Shown piece by piece: positions 30,369 to 56,975 of a stretch of DNA of 64,000 bases. The notes under the pieces are model-generated. The model searched no databases and was not told the DNA's origin. It saw only the letters and a program-made list of their open reading frames with translations. Positions within the stretch are counted from its first letter, which is position 1; each line of letters begins with the position of its first letter. The DNA is from Branchiostoma floridae (taxonomy: Eukaryota > Chordata > Leptocardii > Amphioxiformes > Branchiostomatidae): assembly GCF_000003815.2 (NCBI RefSeq), contig NC_049992.1, positions 19,114,589 to 19,178,588 of the forward strand, given 5' to 3'. The position numbers and the translations under genes are program-made.

Positions 30369-31190
30369 TTTTTTTAACAATCTTTATTCAAGATTCAAAT
30401 ACACAGTACATGAAAAGTCTGATATACATAAACATACACCAAAACAACGAATGAGTACACACACACACTTATAGTATACATATATAACATGCTAATAAAA
30501 GTATTAACTGTATACCTTTTCTAGTTCTTTCCACTTTGTACAGTGAATGGCTAACTTATTTTGTCTTTTTGCAACATTTTCTTCTACTGATCTAAAATAA
30601 ATGACAAAAGAGACAAAACCGTGCAATGATATAGCTGAAGAATAGCGATTTTTGAATATGTAGACTTTACCCAATGAAACAATGAGGTTACAAATGACGG
30701 GTGCTTCTTCCCTTAGATCCCCTAACAAAATATTTAATGGATCGTTCACATTTAAATAGAACCCTGTATTGTGATTAAACCACTTTTGTACACTTTTCCA
30801 AAATAGGGATACTTTCGTACAATTCCAAAAGAGGTGTTTTGCTGTTTCTTCTTCTTCTCCACACAGGGAGCATATTGGAGAGGCTTTTATTTTCCAAATA
30901 TGTAGCATTTTGTTTGTTGCTAGAAATTTGTGTAGCAATTTTAATTGAAAACTTCTTGTAGGGTGGTTTTATCTATGGTGATTTTGTAAATTAAGAGGAA
31001 CACCTTCTTCCATGGTATTATTGCATTTAGATCATCTTCCCAATATGACATTGCATTTCTTGGATAATCATTTGCATTTTTTCCATGAAAAAAATGTATA
31101 CCTTTTTATTGATTTTGGTTCCTCTTAACCATTCATAATTTCGTGACGTAGGTCTACATTTCTGTATCCTGATTTGCAGAACTGGGAAAC
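30369..31190 (-). mobile_element. 5'-truncated LINE, L1/Tx1-like 3' end
   Basis: The minus-strand frame 30938-30504 encodes the C-terminal zinc-binding segment of a LINE reverse transcriptase (C-SLCGEEEET-KHLFWNC), preceded by KFLATNKMLHIWKIK. Upstream, to about 31190, the same protein continues (KKVFLLIYKITIDKTTLQ) but is interrupted by an in-frame stop and a probable shift near 30940. An A-rich tail follows AATAAAGATTG at the 3' end. It is a dead, 5'-truncated copy. Confidence 0.8.
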
Positions 31191-34163: not shown

Positions 34164-34862
34164 AAATGTTATAACTAACGTAAGGTTTTTTAGTTTCTTC
34201 ACGGAACAGAGCAAACTAAACTAGTAGCTGATTTCAATCGGGAATCATGATAGGCATTTTCGAATCAAGTTGTTAATATTTCTGAGTGTACTACTTGTTT
34301 ATGATGATTATGATGCAAAAGCACGTAGCTTAGAATGTAAATTATCATAGACACTAAGTTTCATATATCTGAATTGAATGCTTGCTTGATTCTTTGTCAA
34401 TACGTAACGTTTTCGCGTAAAACGATCGTATGTCTGGAGCAATATACAGTGTGTATAAGCTTACCGAAAGTGAAAGTTCATGATGAGATGGCTACAACAA
34501 TGTTTTGTTATGTATTTGTTTGTAGAAACCATTAAACTACAGGTCATGTCAAACTTAAATTTGTTTCTTATTGCAACTGCTGTGTGCTTATTAATGTCTC
34601 ACAATAGCATAGAGCCAACTTGTTAAAAAAAATTACAATGACAACGAATTTTACTGCATATTCGTGCCCAACATGGACTAAATGCAGTACATTAGAATAT
34701 CAGAACAGGAAAAGCTATGAATATCTCATTTATGGCTACAGAGTCTCTTCTAATTTATCAAAATATAAGATACTTTTTTTTTTTGCTGCTGGGCTCCAGG
34801 AATTTGTTGCTATGTGCCTCTCGTGCACAAAATGGCAGACCGGTTATCGGCAGAGTAGGGAC
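34164..34862. other. 3' UTR and spacer before the inverted-repeat block
   Basis: AT-rich with no gene seen. The 3' UTR of the preceding gene probably ends within the first few hundred bases. The 3' edge is the GGAC at 34859-34862 that flanks the large inverted-repeat block. Confidence 0.5.
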
Positions 34863-35090
34863 AACAGAATCCAAAATAATAAAGGAAAATCCATTTTATT
34901 CCTTTTTTTTCGACTTGATAATCAGAAAACGCAGTGCGAAATGTTTTGAAAATCAAGCCATATTGGATTAGAATGCAACTTTTCAAGACACTCAAGTCCT
35001 GGGAATAGTTACTTGTGGGGGCGATTGCCCCGTACAAAGTCTGAATTGTCCAGTCGTGTCGTCTTGATTTCACAAAAGTGAAGGATACTT

Positions 35091-35330
35091 GGGGGCGATC
35101 GCCCTGCCTGTAGTCCCGGGCGATCGCCCTGTTGGTAGCTTTGGGTGGTCGCCCTGCCTGTAGTTGGGGGCGATCGCCCTGTCAGTACTTGGGGGCGATC
35201 GCCCTGCTGATAGTTGGGGGCGATCGCCCTGCTAGTAGTTGGGGGCGATCGCCCTGACGGTATACGTAGCTCGGGGCGATCGCCCTTTCAGTACTTGGGG
35301 GCGATCGCCCTCCCTGTGGCTGGGGCATGC
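35091..35330. repeat. GGGCGATCGCCC palindrome cluster, left arm
   Basis: Eight copies of the 12-bp palindrome GGGCGATCGCCC and one variant occur every 26-40 bp, separated by related spacers of the type TGCTAGTAGTTGG. The spacing and a self-complementary core would let single strands form many small hairpins. Confidence 0.9.
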
Positions 35331-37216
35331 CAGTAGGTTTGCTCGATCGACCTGCCAGTAGCTGGGATAAATTTTAAATATAAGTATGCAAATATAATGA
35401 GCATGCAATCACACTCACACATACATACGCAAATTACGCACTCTTAGTCCATGCAATTAGGTGTATTGATTGGCAAGGAAAAAGGGAAAACTATACAACT
35501 GAAGACGTAAAACTACTGGTTACAATATAAATGATGCAATGTATAGAGCTAGAGGGATGGACCCTTTACAGTTCATATTTAGCTTGATTATACTTGTCAT
35601 GGCTAATCATCGGTTGTATTTTCAGCAATGCCATGCCCTTGTTGAGCATTCGTCAGCAATGTAATTCAAGCTATTCGTTTGTTACTGATAGCTCTAATTA
35701 CAAGTTTTAAATCCACATGGCCCTTATCAAACGATTCAAGTTCAGCTTGTGCTCGATACAATTCGATGTGTAAACGTTTGCGGTATAAACTCAGTAGTGA
35801 AGCAAAAACACGAAAGAAAGAACAATCAGAGACTACTGGCAACATATGTGGCATCACAACTTCCCGACATTTGGGATCACACATTGTATTACAAATTACA
35901 AGTTACAAATATCATATGGCAGGACCCTAGCGCAATATGAATAAGCAATTGAATCTATTGTTCGTGGACGAATGTAGTCAAACCGCAGTCACATGTACTT
36001 GTCGTAATATAAAGGTTGCAATGGGGACGGTTTTGGACAGTGCTCGAGAAAGGAGCATCTGTCGCAGTGGGGAAGATTCAAGCGTGCAGGTGACGTGTTG
36101 GAGAATCTTGCTGCGCGGGCCGGGGTCTCGGTCCATGCAAACGGTTCCAATTCCTTTTGAACGGCACTCAAGACGGCACATCGTCAGCGAACGCACGTTT
36201 TGATTAAATGGCATCTTTGATGCGACCCACTGGAAGATCACAGTTCTCCTCTTTGTTTGACGTGGGAGTGTGACAGTTGCAAGCGCCTCCGCAGTCACAT
36301 GTCTCCTCGCCATGAACAGTCGAATCACCAGTTCCTTGTCTGGAATGGGCGTTGTTCTGAAAATTGAAGGGAAAAAATGCATCTTTTGTAACTGACAATG
36401 AATTCGAATTATCTGACTTAAGCTTCGTAAGGCTAGTTTCAAAGGATGTGTGAAACTGAGCGGCTGAATTTCGACACAACAACGATCTGTTGAGGAACGT
36501 GGGCGCTGAGACATCGGGACCATTATTGTTATGAATACATAATCACAATCCCCTAGACGTTAAATGTGCTAATATGGTGAACTAAATGCCAATATCACGT
36601 AAAAAAAATTATCCAGTTTTAATTCTCTGACAATGCTTAGGTTGTCTTTAGGTACTAGTGTCATTGTTTATGATTCTGATGCGGAGACAATGATCCCATG
36701 AATTAGTGCGCAGTAAGTGAAGTGAAGTACTTGGTGAAAGTGAGCCGTTTTTAATGCGCGCTAATGGGGGGGGGGGGGGGCGTGAGGCACGCGCCAACAC
36801 CACGGGGTCCGCACTTCAGTACAGCCAAGGAAATTATCGTCATTTATCTGCTACGGGTTACTCTTACGTGAAAACTGACTGGGATGATAGTTTTACAACC
36901 TTTCCGAGCCAGAATCTGGGACAAACGCGGCGAGCCGCGCCAGTTCACAGCGGGGGCTTTCCCCAGAGATCGCTGGAATAGACGAAGACAACGTATCGAC
37001 TAGGTCGGTAGGTGAGTTGTGCACAAATAACGCTTTATATTGTCTAGTTGTTATGTATATGTATATTTCGCAATAAAAAGTGTGCTTAACTAAACACTTC
37101 TTGTGTCAGGTTTTCTTGTTTGCAACTTGGAATCTTTACCGATCGTATTGCCTTGGATTCTTCGCGGTGGCCAATGAAACTCCTCTACCAGCTAAACTCC
37201 GTCCCCAATCTTACCT

Positions 37217-37373
37217 AGTCTCCAATCAGACCCTACGGTGCCTTAGAAATAGAATCAAGGCTGGCAAGGGACTTAGTATAACGGCACCAGGTGCCCGTTT
37301 GACTCCCTTTGGCCGGCTATACTCCTTTGCCAGCTTTGATACTGTCTCTTTTGACTTTAGGCTTGGAGACTAA
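37217..37373. mobile_element. MITE family A copy in the left arm
   Basis: Ends TAGTCTCCAATCAGACCCTACGG and its inverse near 37373 (GGCTTGGAGACTA) frame a fold-back with the family's typical TTTGATACT and GGCCGGCTATACTCC motifs. The same family is nested at 21425 and 25910 and occurs at 43230, 43970, 48020 and 48872. Confidence 0.7.
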
Positions 37374-37922
37374 ATCTTACCCACGCTTGCGCTTGTCACT
37401 TTAGACGGACAGAAATCGGCGTATAAAAATGTAGACAGAACTTGAACTTCGCGGTGGCCAATGAAACTCCTCTTCCGACTAAACTTCTTCCCCAAGCTTG
37501 TGATATTATCTGAAACCACCATAAGATCGGCTTGGAAATTAGCGCTGTCTATCGTTCTGGCATGACAGGCGTGACGGCACGCACCAACACCAAGGTTTCC
37601 GCACTTCACTACTCTCTAAGCAGAGGTTTCTTAAACTTTTTTTAAGTCGTTTTTATGGGGCTCTCTATTTCGTATTGAGTATCTTGTTTTGATTAAAAAT
37701 CAATAGAGGTTTATGGTTAACAATTGTCAGTCATTCTAGTCAATTGTACATGTGTACAAAAATAAAGCTTGACTGATTGATTGAAAGGTATCAGTGCGGG
37801 ATGTGGTAATGAGGTATTTGACCCTGTGTCATAGAAACAAAAATTCATCCAACTATTGATGGGGATGAAAATGAAAGCCACGATTGAAGTATATAATGCC
37901 ACTCTCTAGTATAAAGATATTG

Positions 37923-38113
37923 TCAGGTGTGCGGAAAATACCTCTTTTGACGCTCAAATCCGTCCCCGCTGTCGACGTCACTGTTGATGGATTTGGAAGC
38001 CGTCGGTGTTGACTTGGATCGGACCGAGGTGGACTTGGGAGCCTTCGGTGTTGACTTGGAGGTGGTAGCGGTGGACGTTGAAGCAACCAAAGATGTTGCC
38101 GCCCCAACATTAC
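37923..38113 (-). CDS. Ser/Thr/Lys-rich terminal exon
   Basis: Read on the minus strand, an AATAG acceptor (38114-38115) opens a phase-1 frame encoding a low-complexity stretch (STATTSKSTPKAPKSTS and similar) that ends FPHT and a stop at 37923. A phase-0 frame through the same DNA is also open and proline/arginine-rich, so the frame is not certain. It may be the last exon of the minus-strand gene at 41022-41625. No domain is recognised. Confidence 0.3.
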
Positions 38114-38460
38114 CTATTGCGTATAATAGAACGGATTATTAGTCACTGTTAAAGCACAAAAGGTAATATATGATGTTGTATCTAATACCACGATATATAG
38201 CCAGACGACGTCGACCAATCAGAAGACCCGTTTTCATATTGGTTATGACGCCATAACACATGAAATCAAGGGGTGAGAAGACTGAAGAAATTATTAAGTA
38301 GACGGAAATGTTATGGCGTGAGCCTTTACTTTGGTCTCAAGGGGCATTCCACTCCAGAAGAGAGTGTTATAGTTCCTCAGAGAATAAATTATTTACCTTG
38401 AATCAAATTTGTTTGGTCAAATTTACCACTACTTGAAGCTTTTTAAAGGGGGGACATTGT

Positions 38461-38720
38461 ACGAGGGGCGTGCAATAAGTAATGGTCCTGACCCACTTCC
38501 AGTTGTCTGATCTAAATGAAATTTTGTATGTGTAATAATACAGGTAATGTTTTAGGATGACTTTTTGAGTAGATTGTGTACAAACGTCATCACAACTGCC
38601 GGCCAACACGTTTCCATAATTAATTGTGGTTCATTCTTTAGTAATTTGCCCATGTACAAAAGTAGCTATTTTAGATAAAAGAATGGTCCATAAAAAGTGA
38701 TCAACAGTCTGTATTCAAGG
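38461..38720 (+). mobile_element. Mariner-like element, 5' end fragment
   Basis: CGAGGGGCGTGCAATAAGTA follows a TA dinucleotide, the typical start of a mariner-type terminal repeat. The matching right end is not seen, so this is a decayed fragment of uncertain 3' limit. Confidence 0.5.
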
Positions 38721-40290
38721 GGTCGCAAGGCTTCAAACATTTGGTGTACCTTCCTAAATGTCACTTTGCCACTTTCGTTAGCTTAGGGACCCTACCCTTA
38801 CTGGGTCTTACTGGCCTTTATTGTGAAATTGTGTCCGACGTCGGTCACAAAACCTGTTTTGGCGACGCCATTTTACGTTGGTCTTCTGTTAACATCTTAT
38901 ACTTTAGTGCCCATATTTCCCTATCACCTGGACGGCAATATAACCCCTTATCCGGTATGACAGATAAAACCGTGTCCTGTATTAACCACGCAGCCTCTTT
39001 ATACATAGATACGTAGATAAGATCTACACAACAGGGGTGAGGACCAGGACCACTTGCGGCTATCAGGAGGATGACCTTTTTAAGGGTCAATAGCTTTGCA
39101 CAGCTTGCGTTTCCTCAAGGGCTTGCCTTATGAAAAATCACTTAGCTTCTTCTCAGTCATCTATGTATGGGTATCTGTCTCTGTACCTGTAAAGTCTTTA
39201 AGGTTTGTTCACAGTTATGCCCATATTCAAGTCCATATATATGAGTTACATATTTGTAAGAGGGGAAAGGTCCCCAATTTGCTATTAGGAATTGCTACCG
39301 AGAGTCTACAAAAATGTATGATGGAGGAAAAAGGAGTGTAGACACGGCCCATCTCCCGCACACATATAGACTGCATGCTTGCTGGAGAGCCACAGACACG
39401 TGTCCGCTCTCTGCCATGACACATGACTCACACAGTCACAAAACTGATTTCTCACCACTCCCCTACTAGCAAGCCCGTCCCTACTATGTACCAGACGCAC
39501 TATGTATCCAATTCCATAAGCATCACAAGTGATATTCTATAAACTGAAAAAACAACTTTTTCCCTTAAACATCAAAGGTTATCAAATATGCATGGATATT
39601 GGTGCGAACCAACTTACTAGTCAAAGGGGGTATTTTACATCCGTCTCTCCAAATGTAACACTTACACGGTGATTTAGACACAGTTCTCTATACAATCATT
39701 ATGTAAATGAACAGTGACAGGCGATTTGAAAACAGTTACCTCGCCCTAACGAAAACAACACATCAAAACTAGAAAAAAAGTGATGTAAAACAATTTGGTA
39801 ATTTCGCCCTTCCTACATATATACATTTTTTTTCTTCTATTTTTGTCTTGCTTGCGTACGACTTATTTTGTCAGATAACAAGTCTTCGAATTCACAACGG
39901 TGGATCAAAGTTTAAAAACAACGTTTTTCCCGCACAAGTTTAAATGTACCCTAAGGGTGAGGGGTCAATGTTCCTAGTAAGCACAGTCTAACTGACCGAT
40001 GAGCGATGAATGACTTTTAATCATGCTCTTTTTCCTTGATTCTACAATATTCTAATCACTCAGATGTCGGATCGAAAGTTATGTCCCTTGCCAGCGGCAG
40101 CAGATGACAAAGAAAGGCTAGGGTAGGCAGCTGTTTTATGCTAGGGTATGTCATCTGATGTAGCCTGAGTTAATTTATCGGGGTGAATTATCTGTCCGTA
40201 TTTTGGCCTGGCAAGCTGAATGGCACCCTCTGTTTGAACGCCTGTGGTGTAGCCATATCAGCAGGATCATCGATCCCAGAAATAGTTACT
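38721..40290. other. Spacer inside the inverted-repeat block
   Basis: AT-rich DNA without a convincing gene. Open frames of 60-90 codons near 38741-39500 overlap each other on both strands and have no protein-like features. Confidence 0.5.
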
Positions 40291-40291
40291 C

Positions 40292-40452
40292 TCAAAGCAG
40301 AGGTTAGGTTCCGGCTGTTTTGTTTTTGTAGTCGTTTTTATTGGGGTTGTTAGGTTTTGACAAAGAAGATACCATACAAAATAGAAAGCCCGATAAAAAA
40401 GACTAAAAAAAACGTTTAAAAAACAGTCGGAGCCTAACCTCTGCTTGGAGGG
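40292..40452. mobile_element. MITE family B (fold-back)
   Basis: Left end CAAAGCAGAGGTTAGGTTCCGGCTGTTTT and right end with AAAACAGTCGGAGCCTAACC then TCTGCTTGGAG form a hairpin of about 160 bp around 'agaaagcccgataaaaa'. Partial copies of the family lie near 37610, 41942, 46047, 46560 and 47915. Confidence 0.75.
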
Positions 40453-41021
40453 CAAGAAATGGCTACGCTTGAGTATTCTTCAAGCAGATGTTCGGCCCCA
40501 TCTGTTTTTGACTAGCCTGGATTCCTGTACACCCCAACTCCTGAGCTCTAGGGCCAACATGCCCACACGGAAATTCTACAGCCGGCCCCGAGCTACACCC
40601 TCATACTGAAGTCGGGCCTGGGTCTGGTATCCAGGCTGTTTTTTGAGTGTTTAGGCGTTTTGTCGAGCTTTCCATTTTGTTAAGTTTTCTTTATGTCCAA
40701 TCAAATATTTTTGAGATCGGGCTGGGGTGTGGTATATCCAGGCTAATTTTTTAGGGGTAGCGAGTGTAAGGAGCCCCGGTAGAATACGGATGGTACCCAG
40801 GCTATTCTGCGCCGTCTTTAATGGCTCAATTTACGAAATATTGATATAGATGCGTTTAATGCATGTAATGCGTTTTAATACAACATGACTTACATGATAT
40901 TGCTAAGGTTGCCTTTAATGGTTCATATATAGCAGCTCACCTTCACGACGATCGTGAGCTCCAGTGTTTTTCCTTTTCGCGGGTGTATCTTGCTGAATGG
41001 TCCAAACGCGTCCAGATCATA

Positions 41022-41625
41022 TTACTTGTCACAAAACTGATCAGCCGTCACACATCCACGAAACTTGTGGCAGAAAAGGTTCTCATCCACATGGGATCTC
41101 TTGACTTTGACGAAGTACACGTCCGCATCCTGGTCATGATGGCGTTTTCCAGCCTGTGAAAATAACACTTCGTCAATATCTACTCCAGAGGTTAACTGGA
41201 GTTCACCAACTAACTCTACGTAATAGAACCCATCGTAAGGATGGCTTTTTCTACAGAATAATTTTACATCACATACAGAAAGACATTCTTACAACAAATA
41301 CATACAAGTAATTACGAAGCACGATTTGAAAAAAAAAAATAGCTTAAAAACGCATACTTACTTGTATTGCGACTGTATCGTCTTTGGTCCACTTGTCTAC
41401 TTGCACAACAACTATACGATAGTCAATGACAATGCCAGCAATGTTAGCGTAAACCTCGCCATCTTCAACTTCAAACCACCAATGTTGATCTGTGCAGTTG
41501 TGTAGGCGCGGCTTCGCCATCGAAGTTGGTGCACCCTGACCAAAGGGTATGAAACTTCGAACGAAAACTGTCTGGTATGTATTGACGAGCACTAGGCAGC
41601 ACGCATCTGGATATGCGGACCGCAA
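41022..41625 (-). CDS. Uncharacterised minus-strand gene, two exons seen
   Basis: An exon ending at 41362 with a GTAAGT donor joins in phase 0 to 41153-41022, which has a TTCACAG acceptor. The upstream exon stays open to about 41655; its true 5' boundary, probably an acceptor near 41600-41640, is uncertain. The product contains HNCTDQHWWFEVEDGEVYANI, a beta-rich VIDYRIVVVQVDKWTKDD, then HHDQDADVYFVKVKRSHVDE and CHKFRGCVTADQFCDK. Codon usage and frame retention across the intron look real. The same frame stays open past the TAA to a GTGAGC at about 40935, so the 3' end could be longer or alternatively spliced. Family not recognised. Confidence 0.5.
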
Positions 41626-42291
41626 ACGCAGCTCCGCTTGCAGTGAGTCATGGCCTTATCTCTCCCATCGGTCCGTCGGGTCCTTGTGTACCGGCTGGTG
41701 ATATCATTGTGCCAGACTGCATTGTGCGGAGACACGGCTAATTAACACGAGGGCGATATCCGTCATACACGAGTTTCCGAGAAGCTGTTATTACTACAGC
41801 GACATTCTATAAGGCTATAAATCCTTTATCGGTTCTTTTTGTTCTTTTGTTGTAAAAAAAAAACCCTTTCCGCTCTTCACTCGCGGAAAACTAGCCAAAA
41901 AGAACTGCCCTGTACGGCAGACATGATAATTTGCATCAAAGAATACTCTCCAAGCAGAGATTAGGCTTCGGTTGTTTTTTGATGTCTTTGCTACTTGAAG
42001 GTATTGCTATTTCTTGTCCTTGTCTGAGATGACTCAGTTAGGAGTGGGACTACCTCCATTTTGTACATCAAGTCCGGATTTTTTCCCACTGTCTTCAAGT
42101 TAAGTGACATCCACTGCACTGTTTTCATTTTGGTGATAGAACTCTAGTGGCGGATAGTATTTCGAAAACCCCCAAGTTCAAATGCTAATAAATGGGCTTC
42201 TGTGTTGTTTCACATGTTAAAATACGGAAATAATGAAATGTTTTTCTTCGAGTTTTTGCTACTATCAGCAGGTAATTACGTGCAAGCTGGC

Positions 42292-42445
42292 CAAGCCTGG
42301 ATGCCGGATAGGGCCGGGGCCTATACAGACTAGTTCCTCGGCTCTAATACCAAAATGTCCCCACGGTATTCTACAAGAGGCCCCTTCATTTACCGTGCAC
42401 GATATACATTATTGTGTGCGGGCGGGGTCTGGCATCCAGGCTCCG
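42292..42445. mobile_element. MITE family E (GCCTGGATNCC fold-back)
   Basis: Inverted ends AGCCTGGATGCCGGATAGGGCC and GGGTCTGGCATCCAGGCT frame about 150 bp. Related pieces with TCTGGTATCCAGGCT lie at 40510-40640 and 43390-43525. Confidence 0.6.
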
Positions 42446-42947
42446 TGAAATCGGCCGGCGCCACGGAGTCATGTGTCATGTGTAGTGACTCAGTCCGCCT
42501 TCCCATCACGCAGGCGAGTTGATTTTGACAGCCCGAGATTCATTAGATTGATTCACGCGCGATGTATTTTCTGTCGTTCTACCTATTTGTGTTTGCTAGT
42601 GCTCTTATCAAGCTAAGTCAAAGAACATAATCACGTCACTGCAAACGGGGTGAACGTTACAACTTTCCTCCCAGTACCACCGTCTGCGTCGTTCTACACT
42701 TCACTTCAGGAGGCCATCATGACCCGCCGGATTATCCGAACACAGGACTACCCCGTGGACTTTTCTTGTACGGAGCCGGAGATAAGCGCATTGTCGTAGC
42801 ATTCTACACTGTTTACGATCTCACACGGACCATCATTCACCTAATGGACATGTTTTGGGAGTTGTTGCTGTCTGCCTGGCGTTTATCTTCCGTTGTACTG
42901 TCATACTTTTCTACTTGATTCTACCAGTTGAAGTTCCCCTTGCCACC

Positions 42948-43121
42948 ATGCTAAAACTTCAAGCACAAGAAGGGCCGCTCATGATCGATGTATTTCCAAC
43001 CAGGAGACGGGCGTTTCAAATCAAGGCTACTGAACTAGACTCGACAAAATTTATGAAAAAAATATCGGATGTCACAGGAATGCCGAAGACTTCGTTCAAA
43101 ATATTCACGGCCGGCAAAAAG
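42948..43121 (+). CDS. First exon of a ubiquitin-like domain protein
   Basis: A strong Kozak start (GCCACCATG) at 42948 opens 58 codons ending in phase 0 at AAG|GTACGT. The residues follow the ubiquitin-like beta-grasp pattern: MLKLQAQEGPLMIDVFP as the first hairpin, then a helix FMKKISDVTGMPKTSFKI and FTAGKK at the place of ubiquitin's IFAGK. A possible next exon is the 41-nt segment after TTTTCAG at about 46227 (ending GTAAGT), but its product does not look ubiquitin-like. The rest of the gene is not found, so this may be a truncated copy. Confidence 0.55.
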
Positions 43122-45563
43122 GTACGTTTGCTGTTTACTGTTAATTTTCGTTGTAATGTGAATGAAATATAATTCGAGAAGATGGAGTGAGAAAACCCTA
43201 ATTTGGATGTGTGATATTTCGATATATATACGATGACATAAGGTAGCATCAAAACTGGCCAAGGAGTTAAGTCTGCCAAGGGGTGTACCTGCGTGGCAAA
43301 TGCACGCCCTTTTTGCAGGCTAAACTCACTGGTCAGTTTTGATACTATATTATGCCACCGTAGGATCTGCTTGGAGATTACGATATTACTGAGATCAGGT
43401 GAGGGTCTGGTATCCAGGCTAGCCGTGTTATATAGCTCCCGAGTTGTCTTCTGTCCTCAACAGTATTTATCTAAGCACAAAGAGGGCAATTAATACGCAA
43501 TAATAAGGGTGGATGCCAGGCTATGGTTTCTTGAGAAACAAATGAGAAAATGGTTTGTCCCACTCCGAGAGTTGGCACACTAGCCGCGCGCTGAGCTTTT
43601 CAGCCCTCGTCTAATGGACGGGCGATACCAGACCGGCGGGGGGTTACCGCAGGGGGTTAAGATTTTCTGATGGGGCATGTTGGCCCTGGAGCCAAGAAGC
43701 AGGCCTGTGTAGGCCCTGGAAACAGTCTGGCATCCATCCGAAAGAAATTGTGAGTTGATAGATGAATAATTCAGTGGGAAAATACATGTATAATGAACAC
43801 AATAGTGTCATTCCCGATCATTGAATGTCCAAGGGGGACAGAAATAGGGTTTGAACTGAGTTATTTCCTGGCGAAGTGGTTCAATCCCTATGTTCCGAAA
43901 TCCCAGGAAACTCAATGTGAATGGTTCCTGTATTAAATGCATGTTCCAACACAACAAGGCAGCGGGGAGGTATAGCGATGGTTGGCAAATGCACACCCTT
44001 TGGCCGGCTATACTTCCTGGCCAGTTTTGCACCGTAGGATCTGCTTGGAGATAACCATTTACATTGGGTTTCCTGGGACTTCGTATAAACACGGGGACTT
44101 CCCTTCGGAACATAAGGCGGTCAAATTCAGGATGTGACTCACTACGCAAGGTTGTGCCTTCTCAAAACTCTGTTTTTAAACTATTTGCGCATGCAACAGT
44201 GTGAATAAAATAAATGTTATTTCAATGGCATGATTTAAAATATTTTTACTTAGTATTAGTATTATTAAAATCAAACTATACTTCAAACTACGAACAAAAT
44301 CTTCATTCTAAAATTCTGAGTTTTCTCATGACAGATTTTTGAATACATTATCGGTGTCAACTTACAGATTTTCGTGCCCCGGGTATTCTAAGTATGCACA
44401 TAACGAATAAATGAGATTCGTTGTATGCAGAATTCCGGCACCCCTTTATTGTGTTTTATTTTATTTATTCATTCAAGGTATTATTGTGTTAGATTTTACA
44501 CAAATCTAAAAATTTGGTTACGATTATCGGGAAACGAAAGAACGCTTTCAGAAGACACATAATACTTTTGAACGTTGGATTTCTGTAGACTAGTCTGTGT
44601 AACGCAAACTCCGCTATCCGGAGCTTGTAGCCTCCTCCGCGCGGCAATGTACGACGGGCCTGAGAAGGGCGATTAAATCAGGCTAACCGCAGACTTGCAG
44701 CGGCTCCCAAAATAGATGCCACGGGGGTCCTTTCTCTATAGACTACTAGTATTGTGTTGTGACTACCTCCTTGTTTTTTCAATCAAACTTTTAAAGTGAA
44801 TCTTATTTCGGGCCTCAATTTGAGGCTGCACAGTCAAATCCAGTAGGATTGAGTCGCACGACCCTCTCTTCCAAGAAAGTCTTTGTAAAGCAAACTCCGC
44901 CGTCTGTGGGTATAACGGGCATTGGCATGCAGGTTGGGCGTCGCGAATATTTAGGAACACTGCATATTTTGGCGTGAAGGACATCGCTCTACTATGAAAC
45001 TCGGTTTTCCACGAACCCATAGGCCCTCTCCCTTAGTACATCAAATCGCAGAACAAAGGACAACACCTCATTGATATTTGTCGCACAACAATAACAGACT
45101 AATTACGGCTGCACGTCTGGGGCTGTCTGAGTCTACTAACATATAAGTGACAGGACGATTATCATAACAGCTTGCGTACAATCGGAAACGTATTGAATGG
45201 ACACGCACTAGTTCTAGTAGTTGTCGTCGCAAGGTCTCATGACGTTTGCGACACGTCCTGCGTCTACTTATTTGCCGCACAGCTTGGAATGGTTAGGGCG
45301 TCTCCACGAAAAAATGCAAAATTTGACATTCGTAAGCCTATTTTTGAAATTGAATATGCCATATCTAACTTAAGTAAGCTTACTAAAATGCAGTTTCATG
45401 TCACGAAATTCATCTTGCTTTGGACGGAGCGGGGGAATTTTTCCCGTCCCAGCAAGTAAATTTCCGTTCCTCCTGGGACGGAGGGACGGGTCCTGGAGAC
45501 AGCCCTGCGCCACCCTGTCTTATTCCCTCTCGCAGCGGAATTCCAAAAGAAACAGGGAGTCAA
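43122..45563. other. Spacer with MITE fragments
   Basis: It contains partial family A MITEs (about 43230-43380 and 43970-44055) and family E pieces (43390-43525). The remainder (44056-45563) has no convincing gene; frames of 60-110 codons are not protein-like. Two similar 'gcaaactccgc' segments at 44605 and 44887 may be ends of another decayed fold-back. Confidence 0.5.
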
Positions 45564-45731
45564 CTAGCCTCCATAGCAGGCTCTCTATGGCCTTTTTTGG
45601 CACTTTTGCTTTTGTACTGGGTCGCTGATTGCTGGCCTCTCTGATAGCCGGCCATTTTTTTTTTAAGTACAAAAAGAAATGGCCAGCAAAAATGCCAAAA
45701 AAGGCCATAGAGAGACTGCTATGGAGGCTAG
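45564..45731. mobile_element. MITE family D with AGTCAA target duplication
   Basis: Ends CTAGCCTCCATAGCAGGCTC and GACTGCTATGGAGGCTAG, inner TCTCTATGGCC and GGCCATAGAGA, flanked by AGTCAA on both sides (45558-45563, 45732-45737). It is a 168-bp fold-back without coding capacity. Confidence 0.82.
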
Positions 45732-47047
45732 AGTCAACATCCTACCTATTTTTCCAACAGTGACTGACCAAACCGTGATGAGGGATGCTTCACAAATAGT
45801 TTGACCAAAAACTGATCGAAAGTAACCAGTCAGTAATAAGTTAGTACCAATAAACAACGAGTAGCGCCTGTCTTTGTTTAGAAACGAACGCAGTAGATCT
45901 AATCCTTCGGCTTGACATAATTTATCATAGAGAACACGCCGCAGAGCCCAACTTATTCTGACGGTGCTGGGGCATTCCAGAACGACCTACAGTGCCCCCG
46001 TAGCAGATCGATAATTGACGATAATTTCCTTTGTTGCAGTGAAGTGTACTCTCCAAGTAGAGGTTAGACTTGTATTGTCACAACACAGTAAAACATAGAA
46101 AGCCCGATAGAAACGACTAAAAAATCATTAAAAAAAAACAGCCGGTTTTGGGGTGATGTTAAGGCTAATTTTTCTCACTATCTTCTCCTATTCCCATAGT
46201 TTTGCCACACGTTTACCGGGTTTTCAGGTGCATCTAGGCGGGATAGCACTAGTGTCGAGGTTGGCACCGTAAGTTTCCCCGGATATTTACCGGCGTGTAC
46301 ACGGCATCCCGTCCTGTCTGTATGTACACTGTCCCCGTGGAGACCCGGGTTGGGCTACCGCAGAACCACAGGGGACCGCAGGAGCTAACCACATCGTGAA
46401 ATCCTCATTACTACAGCCCGCACTGACACCTCCCAATCAGTCAATTATTCAGGCTTTATTTTTGTACACATGACGTACAATTGACTAGACTGACTGACTG
46501 ACTGACTGACAATTGTTAACCATTAACCCGTATTGATTTTTAATCAATACAAGACGCATTACAAAATAGAAAGCCCCATAACAACGACTAAAAAACTTAA
46601 AACAAGAAATCTTTTTAAAAAAGCTGTGCCTTGCCGCGTGGTAGGAATATCGTCAGGAAAAGGTAGGTCGGCACTTCAAGCCCGGCAAGGCAAAATGCTG
46701 TGCCTTGGCGTGCAGTAAGGAGAATTTTGAGCAAAAATACCGCAGAATTATGGTTAGAAAACCCAAGGAGCTTTTATCCTTGGAAAACCCCACATTTTAT
46801 TATTTCAGGGGTCCCTGGTCCAATTTAAAAGAAATAATAAGTGTACCGTCCAAAATAAGAACGTAGCGGGTGGATTCTGCGGCTGAAAAAAATAAACGTA
46901 ACTGTTACCTAAACATGCACTCTTGAAAATGCAGACCAAAAAGTCCCAAAGGTGGGTTTTCATGGTTCTGGTCGCATGACGAAAATATTCTTATATCAAA
47001 TGGATGTTATAAAAAGGTAAAAGGACAATTGAAAAAAAAAAAAAAAA

Positions 47048-47120
47048 CTTTCACTAGGCGGGTTCGAACCGGGGTCGGCAGTGTGGCGACTAATCACGCT
47101 AACCACTATGCCATGCTAAC
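47048..47120 (-). ncRNA. tRNA-like pol III sequence
   Basis: Read on the minus strand, TGGCATAGTGG matches the tRNA box A consensus, GGTTCGAACCC matches box B about 45 bp later, and a T-run terminator follows. The T stem and acceptor stem do not pair properly, so it is not a functional tRNA. It is more likely a SINE head or tRNA pseudogene. Confidence 0.5.
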
Positions 47121-48641
47121 ATTCACAGTACCAACTTGTATTAACAGGTATCCAAATCTAAGGCATAACTTGAATACGTCCGTTCATTCCAAGATTCAAA
47201 GATTCTAATGTCTAATCCTCCGAAAAATGTCTAAACAACTGTTACTTATGTGAAAAGTTTGTAATGAGACGAGAGCCTGGCAAAATAATGTCGGGAAAGG
47301 CATGTTACAAGCTCTGATTGGCTGGCTGGAATCTCAGTGTGTCAATAGCCTGTTTAGGCTATAGGCACACTCAGTGTGTCAATAGCCACAGCGATATAAC
47401 AAAATGATCCTAAATATTATCTATTGCGACTTCTCGTGTGACGTTTTGAGCTGGCGCTCTCCTAAACTCACGTTAGCGTTTTGCTGCGGTCTCGGAAGGC
47501 CTCTCCAACGTTTTGATGACGTCATGGCTACTTATATATTCACATACAATTTATTAGCCTGATTTGGAAATTGTTTCATCTTTATGAATAGCTAATGCAA
47601 TTCTTGTTGCGAGATAATGCACTTGATTTTATGTCACTCCAAATGAATTTGGAATTTTACCATACAAACGCTTCATTTATTCAATGTAACCAAATATTAA
47701 ATGCTTTTAGAACCGACCGCAAACAGAAACAAATACGTAAAATGGACGGTTTAAAATTCAACAGGGATGTACCATTGTCTGCCTGAGCCGTCAAACTTGT
47801 CCATGAGAAGGCGATTTGGAAGGGCCTTATGGAAGAGCAAGGTTAACAGGTCCGTCCGTCCGTCCAAGGAAGAAAGTTGGCGTAAAGCCTTGCCTGGCGG
47901 CAAGGCAAAAAACAACAACAACCGGAGCCTAACCTGTGCTTAGAGAGTAGTGAAGTGCGGATACCCTGGTGTTGGCGCGTGCTGTCACGCCCAGCATGCC
48001 AGAACGATAGACAGCGCTAATCTCCAAGCAGATCTTATGGGGGCATAAGATAGCATCATAAGGCTGGGGAAGAAGTTTAGTCGGCAGAGGAGTTTTATTG
48101 GCCACCGCGAAGTTCAAAAACCCAAGTGAATACGATCAGTAAAGATGCCAAGTTGCAAACAAGAAAACCTGACACAGGAGGTGTTTAGTTAAGCACACTT
48201 TTTATTGCAAAATATACATATACACAACAACCAGACAATATAAAGCGTTGTGTGTGTACAACGCACCTACTGACCTAGTCGATACTTGTCTTCGTCTATT
48301 CCAGCGATCTCTGGGGAAAGCCCCCGCTGTGAACTGGCGCGGCTCGCCGCGTTTGTCCCAGATTCTGGCTCGGAAAGGTTGTAAAACTATCATCCCAGTC
48401 AGTTTTCACGTAAGAGTAACCCGTAGCAGATAAATGACGATAATTTCCTTGGCTGTACTGAAGTGCGGACCCCGTGGTGTTGGCGCGTGCCTCACGCCCC
48501 CCCCCCCCCCATTAGCGCGCATTAAAAACGGCTCACTTTCACCAAGTACTTCACTTCACTTACTGCGCACTAATTCATGGGATCATTGTCTCCGCATCAG
48601 AATCATAAACAATGACACTAGCTCGGAAAGGTTGTAAAACT

Positions 48642-48855
48642 TAGCCTCCTTCACAGGCCTCTCTGGGAAGCTTGGCAATTTTTTTTGGGGGGGGGGGCGT
48701 TAGGTCCATTCCCGATTTTTAACCCGGAATATGCCGGGAAAGGAATATATGCCGGGAAAGGAATATACACCGGAAAGCTTGTACGGGCTAGGCGAAATCG
48801 GCTTCCCCCCAAAAAAATTTGCCAAGCTTCCCAGAAAGGCCGGTGAAGGAGGCTA
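48642..48855. mobile_element. MITE family C with AACT target duplication
   Basis: Ends TAGCCTCCTTCACAGGCC and CCGGTGAAGGAGGCTA, with long inner arms built on GGGAAGCTTGGCAA and its inverse. AACT lies on both sides (48638-48641, 48856-48859). The undisturbed sequence GTAAAACTATCATCC at 48390 and in the left arm is the empty site. Confidence 0.85.
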
Positions 48856-48871
48856 AACTATCATCCCAGCT

Positions 48872-49017
48872 AGTCTCCAAGCAGAGATTGTATCAAAGCT
48901 GCCAAAGGAGTATAGCCGGCCAAAGGGAGATAGCCGGCTAAGGGAGTCAAACGGGCACCGGTGACTTGCCAGCTTTGATACTATTTCTAAGGCACCGTAG
49001 GGTCTGCTTGGAGACTA
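48872..49017. mobile_element. MITE family A copy in the right arm
   Basis: Ends TAGTCTCCAAGCAGA and TCTGCTTGGAGACTA, with inner TTTGATACTATTTCTAAGGC. It interrupts the second copy of the local duplication; the uninterrupted sequence 'catcccagtcag' is at 48393. Confidence 0.78.
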
Positions 49018-50695
49018 CATCCCAGTCAGTTTTCACGTAGGAGTAACCCGTAGCAGATAATTGACCATAATTTCCTTGGCTGTACTGAAGTGCGGACCCC
49101 GTGGTGTTGGCGCGTGCCCTCACGCCCCCCTCATTAGCACGCATTGAAAACGGCTCACTTTCACCAAGTACTTCATTTCACTTACTGCGAACTAATTCAT
49201 GGGGTTATTGTTTCCGCATCAGGATCATAAACAATTACTCAAGTACCTAAAGACAACCTAAGCATTGTCAGAGAATTAAAACTGGATAATGTATTTTGCG
49301 TGATATTGGCATTGTCCCGATATCTTAGTCCCACAAACTAGCGCCCACGTTCCTCAACAGATCGTTGTTGTGCCAAAGTTCAGCCGCTCAGTTTCGAACA
49401 TCCTTTGAAACTAGCTATAGCCTTACACAGCCTAAGTCGGATAGTTCAAATTTATTGTCAGTTACAAAATATACCTTTCATTCCTTTTCCATACATAATA
49501 TCGCCTACCTGATTCCTTATATCCACTTTAATTTATAATGCATTATGTTGCAATGGCTTTGTGCACATAATCTACGTATATGTGTGTAATTGAGTGATCA
49601 TTGCAACTGTTTCCAAAGTTTTCAGTCGTACGTAGCTAGTGTATAAGCGCTAAACCCTAAATCCGTTCTTCAATTTTCAAAACAACAGGTGATTCGACTC
49701 TTCATGGCGAGGAGACATGTGACTGCGGAGGCGCTTGCAACTGTCACACTTTCACGTCAAACAAAGAGGAGAACTGATATTCCAGTAGGTCGCATCAAAG
49801 ATGCTATTCGATCAAAACGTGCGTTCGCTGACGATGTGCCGTCTTGAGTGCCGTTCAAAAGGAATTGAAACCTTTTTCATGGACCGAGACCCCGTGCAGC
49901 AAGATTCTCCAACACGTCACTTACACGCTTTGAATCCTCCCCACTACCACCGATGCCCCGTTCTCGCACACTGTCTAACCGTCCACATTGCAACCTGTAT
50001 ATTACGTCAAGTACATGTGATTTCGGTTTGACTACATTTTTCCACGAACAATACATTCAATGGCTTAATCATATTGTGCTAGGGTACTGCCATATGATAT
50101 TTGTAACACTATAATTCTTGAAATGTGTAATCCAAGATGTAGTGAAGTTGTGATGTCACATGTTGCCAGTAGTCTCTGATTGTTCTTTCTCTCGTGTCCA
50201 TGTTTGACCACTGAGTTTATACCGCAAACGTTTACACATCGAATTGTATCGAACACAAGCTGAACTTGAATCGTTTGATAAGGGCCATGTAGGTTTAGAA
50301 CTTGTGATTAGAGCTATCAGTAACAAACGAATAGCTTGAAATACTTTGCTGACAAATGTGCAACAAGGCATTGCTAAAATACAACCGATGATTAGCCATA
50401 TGATATATACAAGTATAATCAAGCTAAATATAAACTATAAAGGGTCCATCCCTCTGTACATTGCACCATTTGTATTGTAACCAGTAGTTTTACGTCTTCA
50501 GTTGTATAGTTTTGCCTTTTTCCTTGCCAATCAATACACCTAATTGCAATGGACTAAGAGTGCGTAATTTGCGTATGTATGTGTGTGTGATTGCTGATTA
50601 TATTTGCATATTTATATTTATAAAAGATATTAAAGATTTATCCCAGCTACTGACAGGTCGACCGAGCAAACCTTTTGGCTTACCCCAACTACTAG

Positions 50696-51022
50696 CTGGG
50701 CGATCGCCCCCCAACTACTAGCAGGGCGATCGCCCCCAACTACTAGCAGGTCGATCGCCCCCCCAACTACTAGCAGGGCGATCGCCCCCAAGTACTGACA
50801 GGGCGATCGCCCCCAAGTACTGACAGGGCGATTGCCCCCAACTACAGGCAGGGCGACCACCCAAAGCTACCAACAGGGCGATCGCCCCCAACTACCAGCA
50901 GGGCGATCGCCCCCAAGTACTGACAGGGCGATCGCCCCCAACTACAGGCAGGGCGACCACCCAAAGCTACCAACAGGGCGATCGCCCTGGACTACAGGCA
51001 GGGCGATCGCCCCCAAGTATCC
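50696..51022. repeat. GGGCGATCGCCC palindrome cluster, right arm
   Basis: About 13 units, most with a perfect palindrome and four variants (GATTGC, GACCAC, GTCGATCG), spaced 24-30 bp with ACTACTAGCAG or AGTACTGACAG spacers. It is the inverse of the left-arm cluster but has more units, so the array has expanded or contracted since the arms separated. Confidence 0.9.
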
Positions 51023-51539
51023 TTCACTTTTGTGAAATCAAGACGACACGACTGGACAATTCAGACTTTGTACGGGGCAATCGCCCCCACAAGTCACTAT
51101 TCCCAGGATTTGGGTGTCTTGAAAAGTTTCATTCTAATCCAATATGGCTTGATTTTCAAAAAATTTCGCACTGCGTTTTCTGATTTTCAAGTCGAAAAAA
51201 AAGGAATAAAATGGATTTTCCTTTATTATTTTGGATTCTGTTGGACATTTTTGTCGGGCGGGAGGGTGTTGTCTTCCGCGCGCGGCCGGTCGAACTTACG
51301 GTGGTCAAATGCACCAGCAAAATCATCCGCATCCTGTGACTCCAATATTACACATAAACCCTTTCAGTGCTTTAGACTTATATTCTATATTTACCCATTG
51401 AAACAACGCTAATATGATAACGCTGTACTTTTGTATGCAAAACTTGTGAAACACAATCTTCAATACAATGTAATATATAGAACATAGGTGGTATTTTCTT
51501 GAAAAAAAAAACAGTCATGACGATTAAAACACACATTGT

Positions 51540-53044
51540 TAACACGAAAATGCAGCAACTTTATTCAGAAAAAGTGAAGAGTGAATTGTATAGTGTTATG
51601 CGTCAGACCAAAGATATTATGTGGTGGTTCCAGAACACATTATTGTATGGGCTAGATCCGTATGGCATACTCGACATAGCAGAAACAAAATGGCCGAAAG
51701 TAGCCATTCAAAGATTAACAATGGAGTTAAGTCAGCGTGTTGTCAATATGTGTTGCTTACTCAGTCTATGGTATAAACAGAAAAAGAAAAACCTGATAAC
51801 ACCACACAAGGCAGGCAAATCATATAAAGACATCCTCTAATCAAGAAAGTTACAGGAAAATCCCTATAACCTATACACTTTACAATTCCCTAAAATAGCA
51901 ACAACTTTTTTTGTTATGCCTTCATTTTGGAGAGACCATCAAACTAAAGCCTTATTTAAAGCTAGTTGTAATATAGTATGGTATATTAGATATAGAATAG
52001 AAACAAAACCTCCAAAAGACCATAGGTATGAAAAACATCTGATGATTAACAAAACAGTTAAATCGGTGTGCTACACATGAACCTTATCATTAAACCTGAC
52101 TCAGTCTATACGTGACACACGAACAAAGAATCACCACTTTATCCCAATCTCTAGAATTTTTAGTGCCTATGTGGGTGGTAAACGTAGTTTGCAAGATAGA
52201 AATATTGCGAAAAATGGTATATCTGTTGCCCCTGTCCAAATCCAATACATTACCACCCAAGAGAAGGCGATATGCCGAAAGTGAAAGCACTAAGGATACT
52301 CTGTAAACTCTGTTCACTAAGATATCAACAATTCTTCTTATTATGCTTCCATTAGGAGACCATCAAACTAAAGCCTTATATACAGGTGATTGTAATATAC
52401 TATGGTATATTTGATATAGAATAGAAACAAAACCTCCAAAATGACCATAAGTATGACAAAAAAGCTACGATTAACAATGCTGTTAATTCAGTGTGTTACA
52501 CATGTATCATTAAACCTTACTCAGTCTACGTAACAATTACCAGTATACAAAGCAATTACCAGTATACAAAGCAATTACCAGTATACAAAGATATGCTCCA
52601 ATATACCATGTGACATTGGGTTTGTTAGGAAACTGCCTATCAGTGACAAAAAATCTGAATTATTACGAGATAAGTTTTTCTTTAAGCCACCGGGTGACAG
52701 CACCGTGTGGAAGGACACAAGCGGGCGGGCTACGGTGGCCTTGTTACCGGGCAGTCACGCTCAACAGGTGGCAAAAATGGAAACCTCGTTTATCCAATAC
52801 CCATTTACCTCAAATATACCGGAAATTCCACTATCAGGACAGAATGAAGAAAAAAAAATTCTCTATTTCTATGCCTCTTCGCCCTCACAGGCCTATAGAA
52901 GTGGGCTATAATCTACAGTAGTAGTAGTTCTTTCTCGAAAGTGCCGAGTGCAGTATGAACAATTTTCGAAACCCTATCGCAAAGGTAACACAAACAGCAT
53001 ACCCATTCAGATGCTATTCATGGAAGCTCTTGTAAAATCCTTCT
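51540..53044. repeat. 3' flank of GTPase unit 1
   Basis: This flank resembles 56340-56810 and 58565-60418, the same position in the other units. It includes a GC-rich piece at 52690-52770 (GACAGCACCGTG...GTGGCCTTG) repeated at 56700 and 59993. Two direct repeats of about 210 bp lie at 51905-52110 and 52328-52535. A 113-codon frame at 51499-51840 is not conserved in the other units. Confidence 0.65.
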
Positions 53045-54368
53045 TTACGAGGTAGTGCACCACGACTCAGGTGCAGGTGGAGCCGGTTTGGCTTTGATAT
53101 TCGGGTCTGTCAGATTCATCCAAATGTTCAGTAACTTTCTGTCGATTTCTGCATTTGGCTTCATGACACGGTAGTCGTCTGGATCAGGCCACGGAGTAAC
53201 GTCCTCGCAGTACAGCGAAGAGATCTTGAATCGCCCCTGGTGGCCTATGAGGTTAAAGGCGGCTTGGGCACCCAGCACGCGTTGCTGAAGATCGTGGGGG
53301 TTGGGGCATTTGTCGACCTTGGTCACCAACACAATGAATGGCACATCTATAGACGTTTAGATGGAAAACAAATTTAAAGACAGTTAAAATCCATACTACC
53401 AACACACTGTCGTTTGAAAGGCAAGAAATTTTGAACTTTTTCAGTATCGATACAGCAATTTATGACCACATTAGTTGCCGTCGCATCTAGCGTTGTATCC
53501 AGTCATAATTTGACGGGCAGAAATTATTTTATACAAATTACAGATGAATGAACATATGAGCTAAGAAAATAAAATGAGTTTTTTTACCGTGCCCTTTCTC
53601 TGCTCCCGACCTGATAGCTTCCACTAGATTGTAGGGAACCATTTTGTCTGCTGACAAGACGAAAACGATCCGGTCAAACGTCATTTGGCGATCTACTCGT
53701 CTAAATTTACTTCTGAGCTGATCCGGGGTTTGATCCATGCATTCGATGACGTTGGTGCCAGATGGTATACGGCCGTCCAGTGTCAGCGAGACGATTGTAG
53801 AGTACACTTCTTCGGTGGCATCTGGAAACCCTGCACAGTCCCAGAAGACGATGTTCTTGTTGTAATCAGGCATTGGATGTGATTCGCCCACCTCATGGCA
53901 ACTGCATGAGGAAAATATGATCTTAATGTTAATTCCTTACACTTCCGGATTAATGCTTGAAAGAAATGAGGAAAGTACAACTGAGGAGAAACCACTTTCA
54001 ATGGAAATTTGCTGATAGAGCATTGCTTCTTAAAAAATGACGGTAACGTGAAACAGCACTGCAACAAAAACGACTTACTTATCATCAAACATGACGAAGC
54101 TTTCCAGGCAACTGGTCACCCGACTTTCGCCGACGAGTCTCTGTGCCATTTCGTGGGTAGAGGCTGTCCGACCGTAGCGCGCGATTTCGTGCCAAGTCCC
54201 AGTGACGGCCATAATCATCGAGTTGATATAGGATGATTTGCCTGAGCCGGGCATACCGACCACAAGGACATTTAACTTTTTTCCAGGCTGGTCGTGGAGT
54301 GTGTGGGTTAGGCGACTTTTTACTCTGTCGCGCAGTTCGTTCAACGACATCCCCTGTGCCTCCGCCAT
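53045..54368 (-). CDS. P-loop GTPase, IFI44-like, copy 1
   Basis: Exons (minus strand) are 54368-54079, 53901-53588 and 53346-53045, giving 301 residues with GT-AG introns. The Walker A/G1 loop GMPGSGKS is at 38-45, G3 DCAG at 118-121 and G4 TKVD at 210-213. The body then includes SSLYCED and LTDPNIKAKPAPPAP, and the C-terminus is WCTTS. The order and spacing fit a TRAFAC-type GTPase. The GSGKSSYINSM start is reminiscent of interferon-induced IFI44 proteins, but that link is tentative. The start MAEAQ is conserved in the other copy, although the frame is open further upstream. A TATATATA motif lies about 40 bp upstream. The C-terminal CTTS has CaaX form but weak aliphatic character. A role in innate defence is only a guess. 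Confidence 0.85.
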
Positions 54369-55303
54369 TTTAACGGAACAAAATTTGCCTAGGTGCAATG
54401 CAATATATATACCGTGAGTTGCTGTGCTCTGAATGCCGAGCGTAGGTGAGCTTAGGAAAGGTGTCGACACCTCATGACCAATAAGCAGACGGCATTGAGT
54501 TCAGCTTCACATGTCAACAGAGTAAACCAATAGCAGACCGGCATAGTTGGTCATACCTCTATTATGTTAATTAGGTACCTTTTCAAGGGATCTATTGAAC
54601 TGCCATACTAATGTATAGGATATCTGCACCAAGCGAAAAATGTAACTATGGTAACGTAGCATTTAACGTAACATTAACGTAACATAACGTACTTTTTCGT
54701 TCAATTGTATTCAGGGTGCAAGTCGTTAGGTAACCCCACTGATTAGCCATCTTGATCAAAGTCTGTGGATCAGCGGGCTCGAACTCAATTGCAATTCTTG
54801 CAATGTCTAAGGTTGGACTGAGTCTCTAGGCAGATTTACCGCTGGCAGTATAAAGTAAAAAGCGGGGCCAAGCAGTGCCCCACCACCACCGGTCGGCCTC
54901 AGCTCGGACATGCTGTAAGGGATTGTATTTGTCATCTCGAATTGTGACGTAAAGCAGGCGGCCCCGTGTAGGAGGGAACTTCAAGTCTTAGCCTCTATCC
55001 TCAAAATATTCACCTGTCAGCAAGTATGCAACGGTAGTTACTCCACTGCTTGCAGACAGTTGATCTCTGGTGTTGTTATGTTAAAAGTCGTGCTCGGCAT
55101 GCAAGCCTATCAGGTGACGGTAGCGTTATAAATTGGTCTTGGATACTAGTATACAAAATAAAAAGAGAAAAGTGTCAGATAGAATCTATATAGTCTTTCG
55201 TCAGGGATCTTTTCCAACAACTGTCCCGAAATGGCACCTGAAAAATCTGGAAAACAGTCTTATTGAAACCCTCAATTGACTGATATGTTGCTACCATGTT
55301 TAA

Positions 55304-56814: not shown

Positions 56815-56975
56815 AACGGCCCGTCCTCTGCCTTGATATTCCGGTCAGTCAGACTCATTCAAATATGCAGTTTTTGTCTGTGTCCTTATGCGGCGTCATA
56901 ACACTGGAGTCGTTTTGATCAGGCCACGAAGCAAGCTCCTCACAGTGCAAGCCGGTTTTATTGAACTGGTGGCCC
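56815..56975 (-). pseudogene. Eroded exon 3 of a GTPase (unit 2)
   Basis: The DNA matches exon 3 of the intact copies: 'cagtcagactcattcaaat', a TCATAACAC piece and 'gatcaggccacgaagcaagctcctcacag'. It has many substitutions and small indels and no open frame. Exons 1 and 2 are absent: the sequence passes within about 300 bp to the 5'-flank type seen upstream of the other copies. This is the dead middle member of the array. Confidence 0.75.

What the first reader, a model, noticed from the sequence alone, without database searches (positions are those of the whole stretch)
34859..51246. 16.4-kb unit with 3-5 kb inverted arms and a GGAC flank
The outer ends AACAGAATCC...GGATTCTGTT are exact inverses, and both are bordered by GGAC. 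The arms are far longer than those of ordinary DNA transposons, the spacer carries spliced coding segments, and no known transposition protein is recognisable. This could be an undescribed class of large cargo-carrying inverted-repeat element, or an inverted segmental duplication that has captured genes. The 4-bp flank match could arise by chance.
Basis: partly seen in the sequence, partly recalled or inferred. Interest (0 to 1): 0.72.

Follow-up and report, generated by a model that had tools for sequence, protein, structure and literature searches.

The report
Giant foldback transposon family with relics
The 16-kb stretch is one copy of a repeated family of unusually large jumping-DNA elements with long mirror-image arms, found at many unrelated places in the same animal genome and probably moved by an enzyme made elsewhere, because no gene for such an enzyme was recognised in this copy.

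Summary
The unit (34863-51242) has inverted arms of about 3.0 and 4.9 kb, exact AACAGAATCC ends and direct GGAC flanks. The same genome holds 68 such ends with at most 1 mismatch (reversed-pattern control 0). By position they form 25 inward-facing pairs (one left end, damaged, comes); 18 of 25 are 12.5-19.1 kb. Exactly 4 bp are duplicated in 9 of 15 pairs whose flanks I read, against a mean of 0.6 and maximum of 7 in 20,000 shuffled pairings. Flanks of different copies are unrelated but for one 35-bp match. So it is a transposon, not an inverted segmental duplication.

All 28 arms examined carry 8-15 palindromes near GGGCGATCGCCC close to the tip, as foldback elements carry tandem repeats. Two subfamilies share these ends but not their interiors. 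No transposase domain was recognised. The "spliced coding segments" are relics broken in other copies. One relic, a last exon in both arms, matches at 60% two long open frames inside 29- and 34-kb elements with the same ends: candidate helpers, unread. Best reading: a giant non-autonomous foldback-like DNA transposon with 4-bp target duplication, superfamily unassigned.

The parts
34859..34862 (.). left copy of the 4-bp target duplication GGAC
   Evidence: family-wide test
51243..51246 (.). right copy of the 4-bp target duplication GGAC
   Evidence: family-wide test
34863..51242 (.). whole element, 16,380 bp
   Evidence: 24 further end pairs in the genome
34863..37828 (+). left inverted arm
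46390..51242 (-). right inverted arm, with nested insertions and a partial duplication
35019..35325 (+). subterminal palindrome array, left: first site 157 bp from the tip, then a 25-bp tandem array (10 sites with <=2 mismatches)
50683..51086 (-). subterminal palindrome array, right (14 sites with <=2 mismatches)
36168..36356 (-). relic of a last coding exon (acceptor-like ttttcag, 62 codons and stop) in the left arm, with an in-frame stop here
   Evidence: relatives
49689..49847 (+). the same relic exon in the right arm, here shortened at its 5' side and frameshifted
41344..41655 (-). exon-like relic 1 in the spacer, donor-like end; frameshifted or stopped in other copies
41021..41249 (-). 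exon-like relic 2 in the spacer
42951..43121 (+). exon-like relic resembling a ubiquitin-like fold by eye (no Pfam or PDB match); broken in other copies
45565..45730 (.). nested 166-bp MITE-like insertion with 8-bp duplication GAGTCAAC; site empty in copy C14b
46610..47907 (.). nested ~1.3-kb insertion; absent or nearly absent from the six other fully fetched A-type copies
48641..49017 (.). two nested MITE-like pieces (48641-48856, 48871-49017) in the right arm

Best explanation
The unit is one copy of a multi-copy family of giant, non-autonomous, foldback-like DNA transposons. A transposase made elsewhere in the genome recognises the terminal AACAGAATCC sequence and, I infer, the array of GGGCGATCGCCC palindromes about 160-570 bp inside each tip, cuts at both ends and inserts the whole 12-19 kb unit, duplicating 4 bp of target. 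Shown: common ends, unrelated flanks, 4-bp duplications, conserved arrays, two subfamilies sharing only the ends. Inferred: action in trans, array as binding site, cut-and-paste. The coding-like pieces are relics. The last-exon relic carried by both arms probably comes from an ancestral autonomous element, whose descendants may be the 29-kb (C19) and 34-kb (C8) elements that hold long open frames with a related C-terminus.
For: 68 ends with <=1 mismatch, 0 for the reversed pattern, 25 pairs by position, 18 of 25 at 12.5-19.1 kb (the left end of one pair). Exact 4-bp duplication in 9 of 15 pairs against shuffled mean 0.6, maximum 7. Between 14 copies, flanks share only one 35-bp match. Palindrome arrays: 8-15 sites in 28 of 28 arms, and in the window 24 of 24 sites lie in the two arrays. 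Subfamily A: six fetched copies cover most of the window element at about 84-99%; subfamily B: four copies share ~92% of the outer 500 bp at 83-84% and otherwise little but short repeats. A 1,066-bp copy keeping the ends has duplication ATAT. No Pfam domain in six frames of most of the window element or of the left 7 kb of a B copy. Last-exon peptide: 32 matches, 30 at A-type arms, 2 at 60% identity in open frames of 616 and 452 aa within paired elements C19 and C8.
Against: No transposase read and no transposition or excision event seen; no allelic empty site. Six of 15 pairs lack an exact 4-bp duplication (C11 and C166 match 3 of 4, C2 is shifted by 3 nt, C4b has a damaged left end, C3 and C5b fit nothing). 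19 of 68 ends are unpaired. The Pfam control rang weakly. 'Open frame' lengths in the genome search may be inflated by runs of N: a 602-aa frame at C14:4533824 proved identical to window DNA that is not open beyond 128 aa.
Confidence: 0.8

Rival explanations
1. Inverted segmental duplication, or an assembly artefact joining two inverted copies, that happens to end at matching bases.
For: Arms are long and diverged like old duplicates, and the assembly has gaps: 7 of 10 fetched copies contain N, and a fragment identical to the window sits at C14:4533990.
Against: 25 end pairs, unrelated flanks, 9 of 15 exact 4-bp duplications; two subfamilies with the same ends and different interiors.
Confidence: 0.03
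2. The A-type copies are themselves autonomous: the transposase is encoded, split over exons, in the spacer or arms and is too diverged for Pfam.
For: Exon-like pieces with splice-like borders occur in the spacer and arms and, at E<=0.001, were found only in the element family. The Pfam scan of spliced genes is weak.
Against: In other copies the pieces carry differing frameshifts and stops. Changes against the window, summed over six copies and not independent, are 108 nonsynonymous and 23 synonymous codons over three pieces. No codon-position bias in the last-exon relic: variable columns 14, 11, 11.
Confidence: 0.12
3. Host-gene-carrying (Pack-MULE-like) transposon: the exon-like pieces were captured from host genes.
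For: Pieces keep intron-exon borders, so any capture was at DNA level; gene capture is common in large DNA transposons (PMC6431247, passages).
Against: No parent gene outside element copies, unpaired ends or one identical fragment at E<=0.001. The last-exon relic has relatives inside elements with the same ends, which points to an element gene.
Confidence: 0.15

Closest known systems
Tetris, foldback element of Drosophila virilis (PMC4079207, passages read)
   Same: Terminal inverted repeats made of an outer part, internal tandem repeats and an inner part, separated by a variable middle without coding capacity; no autonomous copy in hand.
   Different: Tetris duplicates 8-10 bp and has ~220-bp repeats; this family duplicates 4 bp, has 25-bp palindrome units and is mostly 12-19 kb long.
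Galileo, P superfamily, Drosophila (PMC3688188, outline and abstract read)
   Same: [quoted passage not shown] there the tandem repeats contain binding sites of the transposase's THAP domain, the model for my reading of the palindrome array.
   Different: Galileo encodes a known transposase type; its 7-bp duplication is recalled, not read. No such domain was recognised here.
Foldback elements at large (FB of Drosophila, TU of sea urchin)
   Same: Long inverted arms with tandem repeats near the tips.
   Different: Target duplications of about 8-9 bp (recalled) against 4 bp here.
Polinton/Maverick (recalled)
   Same: Size of 15-20 kb and inverted ends.
   Different: Known ones duplicate 6 bp and carry polymerase, integrase and capsid genes; none was recognised here.

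Membership tests
DNA transposon (cut-and-paste type) | terminal inverted repeats shared by dispersed copies | tested here: met
DNA transposon (cut-and-paste type) | fixed-length target site duplication | tested here: met
   4 bp in 9 of 15 pairs; no match of 5-8 bp in any
DNA transposon (cut-and-paste type) | transposase, own or in trans | tested here: inconclusive
   none recognised; candidate frames in C8 and C19 not read
Foldback architecture | long arms with internal tandem repeats near the tips | tested here: met
Foldback architecture | middle domain variable and without coding capacity | tested here: met
   within the limits of the Pfam scans
Tetris / Mutator superfamily | 8-10 bp target duplication | tested here: not met
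   Tetris values from PMC4079207 passages
Mutator superfamily | MULE transposase domain PF10551 in an element with these ends | tested here: not met
   27 matches listed from 71 candidates scored, 0 of them inside the 25 pairs
KDZ, P and hAT superfamilies | PF18758, PF21787, PF05699 domain in an element with these ends | not tested
   requests unanswered
Superfamilies with 4-bp duplications such as Sola1, Sola2, Ginger1, Chapaev (lengths recalled) | their transposases, and same first 11 terminal bases (Repbase rule, PMC4455052 passages) | not testable with these tools
   Repbase not held; no transposase read
Polinton/Maverick | 6-bp duplication; polymerase B, integrase and capsid genes (recalled) | tested here: not met
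   4 bp; no such domain in the frames scanned
Pack-MULE-like gene capture | parent host gene elsewhere in the genome | tested here: inconclusive
   none found at E<=0.001 for two spacer pieces

The most novel reading that the evidence does not exclude
A DNA transposon superfamily not yet described: 4-bp target duplications, AACAGAATCC ends, palindrome arrays as transposase docking platforms, and a transposase whose last exon is related to the relic in these arms, encoded by 29-34 kb autonomous elements (C8, C19); its non-autonomous relatives are the 12-19 kb foldbacks, and some pairs span up to 59 kb.
Probability: 0.25. Interest if true: 0.75.

Novelty: new variant of a known kind. Interest (0 to 1): 0.52.

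Why it matters
Foldback elements are usually studied as few, rearranged copies whose helper is hard to find. Here is a family with at least 25 end pairs in one animal genome, most of 12-19 kb, with a clean 4-bp duplication and a conserved array near the tips, plus two candidate helper loci named by coordinates. It makes two questions testable: what palindrome arrays at transposon ends do, and how units of this size are moved. Long inverted arms of this kind are also a likely source of rearrangement and assembly error.

Tried and rejected
Tried and empty: Pfam scans of ten ORFs (two matches below cut-off, Herpes_UL1 E 0.14 and DUF7039 E 0.18), of the element, of three forward frames of copy C11's left half and of six frames of copy C3's left half; Rfam on the window; exact outer end in viral contigs; PDB by sequence for two relics (best E 0.75). 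Paper searches found no description of this family; Repbase itself was not searchable.

Rejected: a spliced retrocopy of the ubiquitin-like relic at C14:4533824, because the adjoining 195 bases are identical to window 43117-43311 including intron-like and nested-repeat DNA: an identical fragment or assembly duplicate. Rejected: MULE transposase inside any pair. Rejected: autonomous gene in L051 or L052 next to unpaired ends, where only the outer 253-299 bp belong to the family. Not pursued: whether the 59-kb C16 pair is one element; its duplication matches (ATTG) and A-type relics lie 8-10 kb from its left end, but a 7-kb sample from the middle (L053) shows no A-type sequence beyond a 78-bp match, and no Pfam domain.

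Arm homogenisation was considered: in 6 of 13 pairs compared the two arms are closer to each other than to any other arm, in 7 of 13 they are not (C9 dropped because its left arm extract was short). The 13 include the window, whose arms are 91.5% alike and each about 98% like an arm of another copy. So it happens in some lineages at most.
Full report
Observation. The inverted arms, the exact ends and the GGAC flanks are all there. The arms match over 34863-37828 and 51242-46390, in main blocks of 79-95% identity; the outermost 56 bases are identical and similarity ends at the tips. No other copy lies in the window.

It is a transposon. The window lies in a 513-Mb assembly, position C14:19114589-19178588. 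The outer 228 bp of the left arm gave 40 scored matches at 88-100% identity out of 85 candidates. A 20-base pattern of the tip gave 68 ends with at most one mismatch (33 forward, 35 reverse), and the reversed control gave 0. Paired by position and orientation, with one damaged left end taken, they make 25 pairs: 1.07 and 3.7 kb (2), 12.5-19.1 kb (18), and 27.4, 29.2, 33.6, 47.4 and 59.0 kb (5); 19 of 68 ends stay unpaired. These counts are lower bounds. I read both flanks of 15 pairs: exact 4-bp duplications in 9 (GGAC, ACAG, AAAG, CCAT, ATGT, TAAC, ACTT, ATTG, ATAT), no shared target motif by eye. The other six: C11 and C166 match 3 of 4, C2 is shifted by 3 nt, C4b has a damaged left end, C3 and C5b do not fit. 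Shuffling left and right flanks gave a mean of 0.6 and a maximum of 7 in 20,000 trials, and no pair matched over 5-8 bp. Flanks of 14 copies, 900 bp or less each side, share one 35-bp match between copies, besides two matches within one copy. These are independent insertions.

Anatomy. I fetched ten paired copies in halves (seven contain N). Six are of the window's type A and cover most of its length, arms and spacer, at about 84-99% identity where aligned; four are of type B and share about 92% of the outer 500 bp (83-84%) but otherwise little beyond short repeats. B copies have arms of about 4-7 kb at 93-99.7% identity in their main blocks, with a small loop. In 28 of 28 arms, 8-15 sites within 2 mismatches of GGGCGATCGCCC lie from 156-158 to 381-570 bp from the tip, mostly at 25-bp steps; in the 64-kb window 24 of 24 such sites are in the two arrays. 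Types A and B thus keep the tip and the array while the rest differs, which suggests that tip and array are what the transposase needs. That last step is inference, by analogy with Galileo, where tandem repeats in the arms hold transposase binding sites (PMC3688188, abstract).

Coding content. Scans against Pfam found no transposase: 36301-46301 in six frames, 0 at E<=1; 46301-49686 in six frames and 34860-37503 in three forward frames, only UFC1 at E 0.088; a B copy's left 7 kb, 0. The control region with GTPase genes gave only weak matches, so the test is of limited power for split genes. Exon-like pieces stand at 41344-41655 and 41021-41249 (minus) and 42951-43121 (plus). In the window they are open, but other copies carry differing frameshifts and stops, and the changes over six copies sum to 108 nonsynonymous against 23 synonymous codons (copies not independent, indels included). 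At E<=0.001 all 35 matches of the first two and all 17 of the third lie in A-type copies, near A-type ends, or in one fragment identical to the window at C14:4531919-4534184. I call them relics without selection on the protein; their source is unknown.

A lead to the helper. Both arms carry a relic last exon reading outward (36168-36356 minus; 49689-49847 plus), with an acceptor-like border in many arms and variable columns spread evenly over codon positions, 14, 11, 11. Its peptide has 32 matches: 30 at A-type arms, and two at 60% identity with no stop, in open frames of 616 aa (C19:16407700-16407882) and 452 aa (C8:22799506-22799688). These lie inside the 29.2-kb and 33.6-kb pairs with the same tips, about 10 and 11 kb from the end they read towards. 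They are the best candidates for autonomous elements. I could not read them, their flanks were not checked for duplications, and the frame lengths may be inflated by N. MULE domains (27 matches from 71 candidates) fall in none of the 25 pairs; KDZ, P and hAT requests did not complete.

History. Nested insertions date the copy: a 166-bp MITE-like element with an 8-bp duplication sits at 45565-45730 where copy C14b has the empty site, and a ~1.3-kb insertion at 46610-47907 is missing from the other A copies except for a 16% trace in one bin of C5. The window's two arms are 91.5% alike in their inner part, but each is about 98% like an arm of copy C166, so two arm types travelled together and the family moved fairly recently. 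In 6 of 13 pairs the two arms are closest to each other, in 7 they are not (C9 dropped).

Comparison. The plan is that of foldback elements; Tetris (PMC4079207, passages) is the nearest in structure and likewise lacks a known helper, but duplicates 8-10 bp. Size, 4-bp duplication and palindrome array set this family apart. Under the Repbase rule for non-autonomous elements (PMC4455052, passages) it would be filed by its 4-bp duplication and first 11 bases, which I could not compare. Paper searches found no description, which does not show that no database entry exists.

Verdict. Real, ordinary in principle as a transposon, unusual in size, target duplication and end structure; new variant of a known kind, with a minority chance of a new superfamily.

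Noticed in passing
window 53000-62100: A tandem set of GTPase-like gene pieces on the minus strand (P-loop matches, weak in Pfam), next to the element.
   Followed up: no
window 30504-30968: LINE-type reverse-transcriptase zinc-binding end (zf-RVT, E 3.5e-9).
   Followed up: no
window 11176-11907: A 42-bp tandem repeat of 17 copies, open over up to 295 codons on the minus strand.
   Followed up: no
window 21522-21683 and 25997-26094: A 32-bp tandem repeat related to MITE-like pieces nested in the element at 37216, 43308 and 48964.
   Followed up: partly
L053 432-1040 (C16:3544431-3545039), minus: A 202-codon open frame in the middle of the 59-kb C16 pair without Pfam match at E<=10.
   Followed up: partly
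L054 (C14:4533990-4534184): 195 bases identical to window 43117-43311 about 14.6 Mb away on the same chromosome: recent copy fragment or assembly duplicate.
   Followed up: partly
C3:3314003-3318290 of the genome: Two ends of the family facing outward about 4 kb apart, the reverse of a normal pair.
   Followed up: no
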